Shown piece by piece: positions 25,337-37,400 of a stretch of 64,000 nt of DNA (position 1 is its first letter; the number at the start of each line of letters is the position of its first letter). This DNA comes from Periplaneta americana (lineage: Eukaryota; Arthropoda; Insecta; Blattodea; Blattidae), in assembly GCF_040183065.1 (NCBI RefSeq), contig NC_091132.1, positions 164,638,102-164,702,101 on the forward strand, in the 5' to 3' direction. The translations under genes were made by a program, and so were the position numbers. The notes beneath the pieces were generated by a model. It did not search any database, was not told the origin of the DNA, and saw only the letters and a list, made by a program, of their open reading frames with translations.

Positions 25337-25422
25337 TTGAGATGGATGTGATAAAGATGGAACCCGACATCAACCCATTGTCTATGCAGACAAGTGATGC
25401 AGAAGAAAAGCCCTTATCAGAG
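25337..25422 (+). CDS. Gene 2 leader exon 1 with start codon
   Basis: ATG at 25342-25344 opens [20 protein letters not shown], continuing EEKPLSE to the donor GTAAAT. Five bases (TTGAG) precede the ATG inside the exon. The start is chosen because the same MDVIKMEP block begins the leader in unit 3, and this type of start is familiar from cockroach zinc-finger proteins. IKME followed by P is a SUMO-type motif. Confidence 0.85.
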
Positions 25423-28400
25423 GTAAATGAAAAGTGATATTATGGTCTGTCCAAAACTACTTCCAACCTGACAAATCGCAACCATTCAAATCAACCAACC
25501 ACGAGAGACGTATAACCATGGTAATTGAACAGTGTTGCCGTGTCTATGTGTACAAGATGCACGTGAATACCACGCCCTAGTGGTGAATTAAAATATTATT
25601 TAGTTGTATTATAGTTTTAGTGTATCGATAATTATTGTGTTTAAATTATATTAGACGTATTATTTTCGTTGTTATTGGTGGAGTGTGTGACTAGTGTGTG
25701 TTTTCTTGTTTCTGCGTGATTTTCTGAACAGGTGACTTGTGCGACAGAAAAGTGTACTGATTATTAAAATAATAAAATACTCCTTCCTTAACAAAAACAA
25801 AACAAAGCTAGCTTACCTTCTAAATTATGTGTTCAAATTGGTAGCCCTTAGCAGCTTTACAATGTGTCACTTGATCATAGAAACCATTTAAGGAATGATT
25901 TAACCAGGTTTTAGGAATATCTTGCACCACTTTCATTTTTATTTAGCAACACTGAATTTTTACAGAAGTAGAAGTGTGGGTACTTTTTGAAAAGCTTTTA
26001 ATGAGAATTAATTATATATATTGGGTGTTCCATTTAAAATAAGGGCGTTGGAGTTACTTCCGGTTAAACCGGAAGTAGAAAAAGCTCGGTAATACCATTA
26101 TTGAGTTCTTAGCATATGGTTATCCTCACATACCAAGTTTCATGTCACTGAACCGTATGCTTCAAAAGTTATTTAGGTAGTGCATTTATTACTTTAATAT
26201 TTGATACACTTTTCTGTTTTCTTGACTTAGCAACACCGAATTTGTACAGAAGTATCAAGTGTGGGTAATTTTTGAAAAGCTCTTAATGAGCTTTATTCAA
26301 AAATAAATAAATATAATGGGTGTTGCATTTAAAATAAAAGAGTTGGAGTTACTTTCGGTTAAACCGGAAGTAGAAAGACCTCTGTAATACCATTACTGAG
26401 TTCTTAGTATATGGTTATCCTCACATGCCAAGTTTCATGTCACTGAACCACATGCTTCAAAAGTTATTTAGGTGGTGCGGGACTTTTAACTAACATTATA
26501 TACACACAATTTTGTAATATAATTTCTAAACTTAACTGTTCAATATAAGATGTTTTATCTTGCACTTGTGACTAGGTTTGTTTAGGACTCAACTCATTTT
26601 AGTATGTTGATACAATTAGTCTTTGCTCACTTGGCTAAGATGTACTTCACGTTTCAATCTGCAGTGTGCAGCTATCATATATACAGTAAATCTTCCATCA
26701 TTCTAGTATATTTAAAATTTTTTAATATATCTCTTTTATTTTATTTATTGATGGTACTAATCAAAAATTAAACCTTTTATCTTATCCAATTTTTTCTCAT
26801 TCAATTCTAGTTATTTCATTTATTCTTTCCATTCTAATTTTTTTGGCCAAAAGAAGATATAGACCTATTTGCCTTTGCAACTTTATGTTATTATTATTCA
26901 TAAGTTTTTTATAGCTATTTCTTTATTCATTTATAGGAACTTTTCACTTATAAATTTCATCTGTATTTATTTTATATATTGACATTCAAAAACAATATGA
27001 ATGTTATCTTCTCTATGTCCACATAATGGGCACGTGCCTTGAGGTATATTACTTACTTACTTACAAATGGCTTTTAAGGAACCCGAAGGTTCATTGCCGC
27101 CCTCACATAAGCCCGCCATCGGTCCCTATCCTGTGCAAGATTAATCCAGTCTCTATCATCATATCCCACCTCCCTCAAATCCATTTTAATATTATCCTCC
27201 CATCTACGTCTCGTCCTCCCTAAAGGTCTTTTTCCCTCCGGTCTCCCAACTAACACTCTATATGCATTTCTGGATTCGCCCATACGTGCTACATGCCCTG
27301 CCCATCTCAAACGTCTGGATTTAATGTTTCTAATTATGTCAGGTGAAGAATACAATGTGTGCAGTTCTGCGTTGTGTAACTTTCTCCATTCTCCTGTAAC
27401 TTTATCCCGCTTAGCCCTAAATATTTTCCTAAGCACCTTATTCTCAAACACCCTTAACCTATGTTCCTCTCTCAGAGTGAGAGTCCACGTTTCACAACCA
27501 TACAGAAGAACCAGTAATATAACTGTTTTATAAATTCTAACTTTCAGATTTTTGGACAGCAGACTGGATGATAAGAGCTTCTCAACTGAATAATAACAAG
27601 CATTTCCCATATTTATTCTGCGTTTAATTTCCTCCCGAGTGTCATTTATATTTGTTACTGTTGCTCCAAGATATTTGAATTTTTCCACCTCTTCGAAGGA
27701 TAAATTTCCAATTTTTATATTTCCATTTCGTACAATATTCTGGTCACGAGACATAATCATATACTTTGTCTTTTCGGGATTTACTTCCAAACCGATCGCT
27801 TTACTTGCTTCAAGTAAAATTTCCGTGTTTTCCCTAATCGTTTGTCTATTTTCTCCTAACATATTCACGTCATCCGCATAGACAAGAAGCTGATGTAACC
27901 CGTTCAATTCCAAACCCTTCCTGTTATCCTGAACTTTCCTAATGGCATATTCTAAAGCGAAGTTAAAAAGTACTTGAGGTATATTACCTGTATTTTTACT
28001 TAATCTCCAAATTGGTGGACTAAGATATCACACGGTGGTTAAAGTTTCATGGCAAAATATCTTCCCCAATGAAGACTCATCAGCTAGTGAGTCTGCCAGA
28101 TTCAATTCTTTAACTGGAAGAATAGGTTGTTTGTTTAGTTTCGCCATCAAGGAGACGTTGCTGCTTTAAACATGGCACACATTTATTTCTTATCTGGTCA
28201 TAGCTTTGAGTTACAGATTAAATAGCATCCATTCAAATTTGTGTCACTGTAGTAATACTGTATCAGCAGAGATGTTAGAGATCACAGTTGTTTGCTGCTT
28301 GAATCAATATTAAACAGAACAACTCTACTACTATTCTGTCATTCATAACTCTCAGGAAAAATATCTAACACAATAACTCATTTCAAAACATATTTTACAT

Positions 28401-34400: not shown

Positions 34401-37400
34401 CCAGAAATATCTGAAATAGTTTCGAACTTTATTAAGAAAACTTTCCATTATCTGTTTTACCATAACAGTTTGATTACCTGTTAACTTGGTCTTCGTGAAT
34501 CCTACTCACATATGATCATCCATCATACCATTCTAGTGTCTCTTACTGTTGACTTCCTGTTTATGCAATTCTTATTTAAAACGGGATGTTTCTCAGAAAA
34601 TGCCATATTATTTTCTCTTTTAATTGGTTTAAATCGTTTGCATTTTTCACCGACAATGTTTGAACTTTATCCTGAATTAAGTAGGATTTAAAATCAAGTC
34701 TACAGCATATAAACTGCAGTGCACTGATTCTTGAACTGCTATTGTCCTATAGCTTCGTTTTATAAAATTACTTGCAGGAGGAGACACATGAGTTAGATGA
34801 AGTGGAGGAGGAGGTCAAACTGGAAGTAACGGCAGAAGAGGATGAAGTCTTCACTGAGGGGTGAGTGAAGTGTGTGAACCTTTACTTCGTTGTTGGTTTC
34901 TCTGCTATGTTTTAGTTATAACGTCAAAGAACATAAATATGTACTTAAAATGAACATGATCTTTGTTCAAATGAAGGTCTCAGTATTCTGAACTGCCTTG
35001 TCTACCTGTAAATGTGTCTGTATGTCTCTTTATGAGTTTGTCTATCTTTTTGTCTGCAAACCTGGCTTTCACGTATAGCACCCTGTGAAGTAGACTTGAA
35101 TAATTTGAAGGGAAAATTATTTTTGGGCCGGGTATAGATCTGTAGGTACGTTACCAGAAAAAACCACAATTCAAGTCACACAGTTTGTGTGCACTCTGAG
35201 TTGGGTTTCTGGCGTCTTGTCAGGCCACTTGAGTAGCACAAATGGTAAAGCGTTGGTGCACTAAGGCAAATGTCATGGGATCGATACCTGGCACAGAACA
35301 ATTTCTCTCTTGAAATTATCTTTGCCTGTCTTTGTAGCTCTCTGTCTGTGTCTTCAACATTCCGCCTATCCATTATTCGATCTATCCACCCTCCCACGCA
35401 TCCACCAGTGTGAATATAAATTCCTGTATGAAGCAATTTGTGAGTATATTAATTTCAGTTTACTGTCATTTACCATTTGCAATCTCCAAACCCTAGAAGT
35501 GGATCAGAATAATCTAATCGCTCAGTATTTTTACTTTAAAGTTTCATTATTTTTACGTCATTATTTATCTAATCTATCTATCTATCTATCTATCTATCTA
35601 TCTATCTATCTATCTATCTATCTATCTATCTATCTATCTATCTATCTATCTATCTATCTATCTATCTATCTATCTATCTATCTATCTATCTATCTATCTA
35701 TCTATCTATCTATCTATCTATCTATCTATCTATCTATCTATCTATCTATCTATCTATCTATCTATCTATCTATCTATCTATCTATCTATCTATCTATCTA
35801 TCTATCTATCTATCTATCTATCTATCTATCTATCTATCTATCTATCTATCTATCTATCTATCTATCTATCTATCTATCTATCTATCTATCTATCTATCTA
35901 TCTATCTATCTATCTATCTATCTATCTATCTATCTATCTATCTATCTATCTATCTATCTATCTATCTATCTATCTATCTATCTATCTATCTATCTATCTA
36001 TCTATCTATCTATCTATCTATCTATCTATCTATCTATCTATCTATCTATCTATCTACCTGTCTGTCTGTCTGTCTGCCTAATCTGTCTATCTAATCTATC
36101 TATTCTATCTAATCTATCTATTCTATCTAATCCATCTATTCTATCTAATCTATCTATCTATCTATCTATCTATCTATCTATCTATCTATCTATCTATCTA
36201 TCTATCTATCTATCTATCTATCTATCTATCTATCTATCTATCTATCTATCTATCTATCTATCTATCTATCTATCTATCTATCTATCTATCTATCTATCTA
36301 TCTATCTATCTATCTATCTATCTATCTATCTATCTATCTATCTATCTATCTATCTATCTATCTATCTATCTATCTATCTATCTATCTATCTATCTATCTA
36401 TCTATCTATCTATCTATCTATCTATCTATCTATCTATCTATCTATCTATCTATCTATCTATCTATCTATCTATCTATCTATCTATCTATCTATCTATCTA
36501 TCTATCTATCTATCTATCTATCTATCTATCTATCTATCTATCTATCTATCTATCTATCTATCTATCTATCTATCTATCTATCTATCTATCTATCTATCTA
36601 TCTATCTATCTATCTATCTATCTATCTATCTATCTATCTATCTATCTATCTATCTATCTATCTATCTATCTATCTATCTATCTATCTATCTATCTATCTA
36701 TCTATCTATCTATCTATCTATCTATCTATCTATCTATCTATCTATCTATCTATCTATCTATCTATCTATCTATCTATCTATCTATCTATCTATCTATCTA
36801 TCTATCTATCTATCTATCTATCTATCTATCTATCTATCTATCTATCTATCTATCTATCTATCTATCTATCTATCTATCTATCTATCTATCTATCTATCTA
36901 TCTATCTATCTATCTATCTATCTATCTATCTATCTATCTATCTATCTATCTATCTATCTATCTATCTATCTATCTATCTATCTATCTATCTATCTATCTA
37001 TCTATCTATCTATCTATCTATCTATCTATCTATCTATCTATCTATCTATCTATCTATCTATCTATCTATCTATCTATCTATCTATCTATCTATCTATCTA
37101 TCTATCTATCTATCTATCTATCTATCTATCTATCTATCTATCTATCTATCTATCTATCTATCTATCTATCTATCTATCTATCTATCTATCTATCTATCTA
37201 TCTATCTATCTATCTATCTATCTATCTATCTATCTATCTATCTATCTATCTATCTATCTATCTATCTATCTATCTATCTATCTATCTATCTATCTATCTA
37301 TCTATCTATCTATCTATCTATCTATCTATCTATCTATCTATCTATCTATCTATCTATCTATCTATCTATCTATCTATCTATCTATCTATCTATCTACCTA

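What the first reader, a model, noticed from the sequence alone, without database searches (positions are those of the whole stretch)
25342..34860. Leader exons each carry psi-K-x-E motifs: a modular SUMO-acceptor N-terminus
Gene 2 has IKME (exon 1), IKTE and VKSE (exon 2), IKTE and MKSE (exon 3) and VKLE (exon 4). The motifs persist in genes 1 and 3 although neighbouring residues differ. psi-K-x-E is the established SUMO-conjugation consensus, often linked to repression. A C2H2 family in which every small exon adds a SUMO site would be a KRAB-like analogue built on a different principle. That role is inferred.
Basis: partly seen in the sequence, partly recalled or inferred. Interest (0 to 1): 0.75.

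Follow-up and report, generated by a model that had tools for sequence, protein, structure and literature searches.

The report
Zinc-finger leader exons conserving SUMO-site motifs
A zinc-finger gene in this insect genome starts with short repeated exons, of a kind copied many times over, in which evolution has preserved the lysine and glutamate of a motif that cells use to attach the regulatory protein SUMO far better than most residues around them; actual attachment has not been tested.

Summary
Persistence in the three tandem copies proves nothing (introns are as alike as exons). The genome gives the real test: exons 2 and 3 are copies of one exon type with at least 150 matches (E <= 1.1e-8). 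In 107 such exons of 46 aa, the six motif K/E columns rank 1, 2, 3, 5, 6 and 8 of 46 in conservation, with dN/dS 0.15 against 0.64 for the rest. Lys is almost never Arg, Glu rarely Asp. No known domain matches. SUMO acceptor sites are the best reading; repression is inferred. 'Every exon adds a site' fails as far as tested: the exon 4 motif is broken in the three divergent copies found, and exon 1 could not be tested outside the window (server busy). Exons were found by similarity, so ascertainment is only partly controlled, and only the window's exons were seen joined to fingers.

The parts
25342..25422 (+). Gene 2 leader exon 1 (27 aa), IKME at 25351-25362
30601..30735 (+). Gene 2 leader exon 2 (45 aa, phase 0-0), IKTE 30634-30645 and VKSE 30718-30729; middle site absent (LISE)
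33408..33545 (+). Gene 2 leader exon 3 (46 aa, phase 0-0), homologous to exon 2; IKTE 33441-33452, LKSE 33474-33485, MKSE 33528-33539
34778..34860 (+). Gene 2 leader exon 4 (acidic, ends phase 2), VKLE 34814-34825; site broken in the three divergent copies found
42352..43993 (+). Gene 2 zinc-finger exon (inferred acceptor after 42351), 15 C2H2 matches, no psi-K-x-E
3407..3541 (+). Gene 1 leader exon 2
6657..6794 (+). Gene 1 leader exon 3
8004..8086 (+). Gene 1 leader exon 4
13099..14667 (+). Gene 1 zinc-finger region, interrupted by in-frame stops (first after 365 codons of the open frame)
54464..54544 (+). Gene 3 leader exon 1
59025..59159 (+). Gene 3 leader exon 2
62043..62180 (+). Gene 3 leader exon 3
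63400..63482 (+). Gene 3 leader exon 4 (its finger exon lies beyond the window and was not seen)

Best explanation
The leader is the N-terminal effector part of a large insect C2H2 zinc-finger family. Its core is a duplicated 46-aa exon with three psi-K-x-E sites at fixed spacing (K13, K24, K42). Shown: selection acts most strongly on the Lys and Glu of these sites (and on D18), with psi free within V/I/L/M/F and x free. Inferred: Ubc9 conjugates SUMO to these lysines, and the SUMO cluster on the DNA-bound protein recruits SUMO-binding corepressors, so the fingers choose the target and the leader silences it. That would be KRAB-like in role, by modification rather than by a folded domain. Exons 2 and 3 are phase 0-0, so copies can be added, lost or skipped without a frameshift, which could let the number of sites vary between genes and isoforms (inferred).
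For: Enrichment of the motif with flat controls. In 107 exons of 46 aa, motif K/E columns are ranks 1, 2, 3, 5, 6, 8 of 46 by weighted entropy. Codon parsimony on 104 distinct exons: dN/dS 0.15 for motif K/E, 0.64 for remaining columns, 0.55 for nine other acidic columns; 0 of 200,000 random six-column sets had so few nonsynonymous changes; 20.5 synonymous changes inside the motif columns rule out mere recency. psi columns are in VILMF in 107, 106 and 106 of 107 although the top residue is only 0.91, 0.59 and 0.37. Motif Lys 310 K to 1 R, motif Glu 304 E to 5 D: identity rather than charge is kept, as Ubc9 recognition needs (recalled). Retention of K/E does not fall as flanks diverge (0.954, 0.951, 0.971 in bins of 36, 48 and 23 exons; r = -0.02). 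120 of 123 collected exon matches have AG/GT sites and an open frame. No known domain. The passage read in PMC9890238 cites human work that implicates SUMO sites in repressive domains.
Against: No modification, expression or repression data. The exon 4 site is broken in the three divergent copies found. The same passage of PMC9890238 says SUMO motifs were not significantly more frequent in Drosophila repressive domains than in other fragments. D18, outside the core motif, is as strongly constrained (dN/dS 0.05), and L5, N3, T10, F38, E31 are fairly conserved, so more than the SUMO core is under selection. AF2 on six window rows gives a helix over residues 4-26, which includes the first two sites (pLDDT 63, pTM 0.30), whereas acceptor sites are usually extended (recalled). 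Exons were found by similarity to one exon, 110 of 150 rows were fetched and not at random, and a masked-query control was not run. Only the window's exons were seen upstream of fingers; the other loci were not checked for a finger exon. Cell counts are not independent, and its comparison columns are loose: 30 of the 47 Asp come from one column, and the K/R comparison is with columns that are not mostly Lys (the best matched, column 11, has 23 K and 2 R).
Confidence: 0.58

Rival explanations
1. The exon encodes a short folded or helix-forming interaction module; Lys and Glu are kept for salt bridges or a charged surface, and SUMO is irrelevant.
For: AF2 helix over residues 4-26; other columns (D18, L5, N3, T10, F38) are also conserved.
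Against: Identity, not charge, is kept: motif K 310 vs R 1, motif E 304 vs D 5, while other E columns allow D (47 of 442 E+D cells, 30 of them in column 30). The psi-K-x-E pattern recurs three times in one exon in different local contexts, and an i, i+2 pair does not make a helical salt bridge (recalled). AF2 confidence is low.
Confidence: 0.22
2. The lysines are kept for another modification or reader (acetylation, ubiquitin, a degron or a KxE-binding protein).
For: Lys identity seems to be required; nothing here identifies the enzyme.
Against: The joint need for a hydrophobic at -1 and Glu at +2 fits Ubc9 better than other lysine modifiers (recalled, not tested here).
Confidence: 0.13
3. The motifs are a by-product of an acidic, Lys-containing linker plus recent gene duplication.
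For: The three window copies are about 91-98% identical in long blocks that are mostly intron, and 95-99% in the leader exons.
Against: Shuffles with the same composition give 0.61 motifs, not 7; dN/dS 0.15 in the motif against 0.64 elsewhere over 104 distinct exons.
Confidence: 0.05

Closest known systems
KRAB zinc-finger genes of tetrapods
   Same: Tandemly duplicated C2H2 genes with N-terminal exons ahead of one finger exon (exon layout recalled); passages of PMC7655104 describe KRAB genes as amplified lineage by lineage.
   Different: No KRAB domain in the leader; short SUMO-type motifs stand where a corepressor-binding box would be.
ZAD zinc-finger genes of insects
   Same: Insect-expanded C2H2 family that has been proposed as a KRAB counterpart (PMC7655104, passages).
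   Different: No ZAD match; the gene 2 leader has two cysteines, a ZAD uses four (recalled).
Synergy-control motifs and SUMO-dependent repression modules of transcription factors (recalled)
   Same: psi-K-x-E in transcription factors; exon 1 IKMEP, and P39 three residues before K42, resemble the proline-flanked form.
   Different: Here three sites at fixed spacing sit inside an exon type copied many times; most sites lack prolines on both sides.

Membership tests
SUMO acceptor consensus psi-K-x-E | Large hydrophobic, Lys, any, Glu | tested here: met
   7 in the gene 2 leader; site 2 in 97 and site 3 in 94 of 107 exons; site 1 K and E in 104 of 107 with psi in 107 of 107. The site 1 tally printed (0 of 107) used a wrong column offset and is discarded.
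SUMO acceptor consensus psi-K-x-E | Lys and Glu under selection beyond flanks, Lys not replaceable by Arg | tested here: met
   (exon 2/3 type only)
SUMO acceptor consensus psi-K-x-E | SUMO conjugated in vivo or in vitro | not testable with these tools
   no biochemical data
   exon 4 site broken in L030, L034, L038; kept in the window copies and in L023 (splice sites of these exon 4 copies not checked); exon 1 untested outside the window
KRAB-ZNF | KRAB domain | tested here: not met
   no Pfam family for the gene 2 leader at E <= 1 or for 24 exon 2/3 members at E <= 0.1
ZAD-ZNF | N-terminal ZAD with zinc-binding cysteines | tested here: not met
Synergy-control motif (recalled) | Prolines on both sides of the psi-K-x-E core | tested here: inconclusive
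   P39 in 90 of 107 exons lies before site 3, and exon 1 has P after IKME; sites 1 and 2 of the consensus have no such prolines (read by eye)
C2H2 zinc-finger proteins | Tandem C2H2 fingers | tested here: met
   PF00096 and PF13465 over the finger exon; 15 pattern matches in gene 2

The most novel reading that the evidence does not exclude
An insect lineage has built its KRAB equivalent from amplified SUMO-acceptor exons: a frame-neutral 46-aa cassette with three fixed-spaced sites, duplicated within and between many C2H2 genes, so that repression strength is set by the number of sites and the target by the fingers.
Probability: 0.35. Interest if true: 0.8.

Novelty: new variant of a known kind. 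Interest (0 to 1): 0.6.

Why it matters
If this leader is a SUMO platform, it gives a simple, testable rule for how a large insect zinc-finger family acts, and a second evolutionary route to KRAB-like silencing beside the ZAD genes. One exon can be tested in a standard insect cell line with a few point mutations.

Tried and rejected
Persistence across the three window copies as evidence: rejected, because the copies are about as similar in introns as in exons and P = 0.20. Known domain: none (one search gave one PDB row, 2psb, at E = 1.3, taken as chance). Relatives in viral contigs: none. Literature: searches returned no paper that looked like a description of this leader (judged from listings with titles and starts of abstracts; others returned nothing). 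Searches sought SUMO and repression papers and gave PMC9890238, of which I read passages only; of PMC7655104 I read passages only. Two further papers (by DOI, PMC11749891) are not held.

Ascertainment: the exons were found by similarity to gene 2 exon 3. A simulation of choosing the top 150 of 1345 by BLOSUM score gave motif columns no advantage (0.67-0.81 against 0.68-0.82 for the rest), whereas observed identity to the query is 0.956 against 0.583. This does not model the tool's unknown seeding. A query with the motif residues masked, and a search with exon 4, were planned and never sent; the exon 1 search was sent many times and never answered.

Rows dropped: tblastn gave 123 exon matches, 3 lacked clean sites or an open frame, 4 were the same places twice, leaving 116; 9 of these (44, 45, 48 or 49 aa, including the three window exon 2 copies) were left out of the column statistics. 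Of the 150 rows I fetched 110: the tool's top 30 and 80 chosen by me, not at random, from the lower ranks; at least one further row lay inside a fetched locus.

Full report
What is there. The window lies at G000:C16:164638102-164702101 of an unnamed 3.23-Gb genome. It holds three tandem copies, about 29 kb apart, of a C2H2 zinc-finger gene; long matching blocks, mostly intron, are about 91-98% identical and leader exons 95-99%. Gene 2 has all its parts in the window: leader exons at 25342-25422, 30601-30735, 33408-33545 and 34778-34860, then an inferred finger exon from 42352 with 15 C2H2 matches, a 693-aa model. Exons 2 and 3 are homologous to each other (76% of bases, 56% of residues).

The observation. 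Shuffling residues within exons gives 0.61 motifs on average; none of 20,000 shuffles reached seven. Reversed and altered motifs are at chance level, and the finger exon, with 75 lysines, has none. So the enrichment is real. That the motifs persist in genes 1 and 3 is true for the exons in the window but carries no weight: 15 of 146 leader columns vary and none is among the 14 motif K/E columns, P = 0.20.

A genome search with exon 3 scored 150 of 1345 first-look candidates, and all 150 had E <= 1.1e-8, on contigs C16, C17, C9 and C12. Of the 150 scored finger matches (17,065 candidates), roughly three quarters, counted by eye, are on C16 and C17. I fetched DNA for 110 of the 150 exon rows and extracted 123 exon matches, neighbouring and window exons included; 120 have AG and GT at the ends and an open frame. 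Without duplicates there are 116, of which 107 are exactly 46 aa. In these the columns in order of conservation are E15, K42, K13, D18, E26, E44, I12, K24. The columns between K and E (14, 25, 43) vary more, and the columns before K (12, 23, 41) stay within V/I/L/M/F in 107, 106 and 106 of 107. Of 116 exons, 87 have three motifs, 26 two, 2 one and 1 four. Whether the exons outside the window lead into fingers was not checked.

Selection. On a tree of 104 distinct exons, codon parsimony gives dN/dS 0.15 for the six motif columns, 0.77 for psi, 0.58 for x, 0.64 for the rest and 0.55 for nine other acidic columns; no random set of six columns in 200,000 had so few nonsynonymous changes. 20.5 synonymous changes in the motif columns show that these codons have had time to change. 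Motif Lys is almost never Arg (310 to 1; elsewhere 72 to 55, in columns that are not mostly Lys) and motif Glu rarely Asp (304 to 5; other E columns 395 to 47, 30 of the 47 in column 30). These counts are of cells, not independent events. Motif retention is the same in exons with diverged and with well-kept flanks. Choosing hits by score does not by itself favour the motif columns, but the tool's seeding is unknown and the masked-query control was not run.

What speaks against the simple form. In exon 4 the motif is intact in the window copies and L023 but broken in L030 (VRLE), L034 (VKLG) and L038 (PRVK at the aligned place), the only three divergent exon 4 copies seen in the 30 loci searched. 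Exon 1 could not be examined outside the window because the genome server did not answer. The exon 2 copies of the window lack the middle site. So the unit is a three-site exon, amplified, and not one site per exon. D18 is as constrained as the motif; it lies five residues after K13, which recalls the acidic extension of some SUMO sites (recalled, post hoc). AF2 on six window rows suggests a helix over residues 4-26 (pLDDT 63, pTM 0.30); with so few rows this says little.

How it probably works. Shown: a 46-aa frame-neutral exon with three fixed-spaced psi-K-x-E sites, constrained in the way the SUMO consensus demands. Inferred: SUMO is attached, and SUMO-binding corepressors act at the targets chosen by the fingers. 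The passage read in PMC9890238 cuts both ways: it cites human work that implicates SUMO sites in repressive domains, and reports that in Drosophila such motifs were not significantly more frequent in repressive domains than in other fragments. So motif presence alone predicts repression poorly.

Known relatives. Neither KRAB nor ZAD nor any Pfam or NCBIfam family matches, and no PDB chain at E <= 1. Insect ZAD genes have been proposed as KRAB counterparts (PMC7655104, passages); this leader would be a third kind. My paper searches showed no description of it, in a library without most subscription journals.

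Noticed in passing
13099-14667: Gene 1's finger region has in-frame stops (first after 365 codons; finger sequence goes on after it), so gene 1 looks truncated or decaying while its three leader exons in the window stay open.
   Followed up: partly
4375-5288, 31448-32119, 59880-60715: An 84-bp satellite (8-11 copies) sits in the intron between leader exons 2 and 3 of all three genes; 84 bp is also the period of the finger repeats, though by eye the sequences look unrelated.
   Followed up: no
35562-38139: A 2.6-kb TATC array in the intron after exon 4 of gene 2; by the ORF list gene 1 has a much shorter, different low-complexity stretch near 8803-9005.
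   Followed up: no
27074-28027 and 56196-57149, minus strand: Reverse-transcriptase remnant (PF00078 for the first copy; the second was not scanned) in intron 1 of genes 2 and 3, so probably older than that duplication.
   Followed up: partly
L015, L021, L023, L025, L026: These loci also carry two exons of the 46-aa type about 0.5-1.3 kb apart, so paired exons are common in the family.
   Followed up: partly
exon column 18 (33459-33461 in gene 2): Asp18, outside the core motif, has dN/dS 0.05 with 14.5 synonymous changes, the lowest P for constraint in the exon; unexplained.
   Followed up: no
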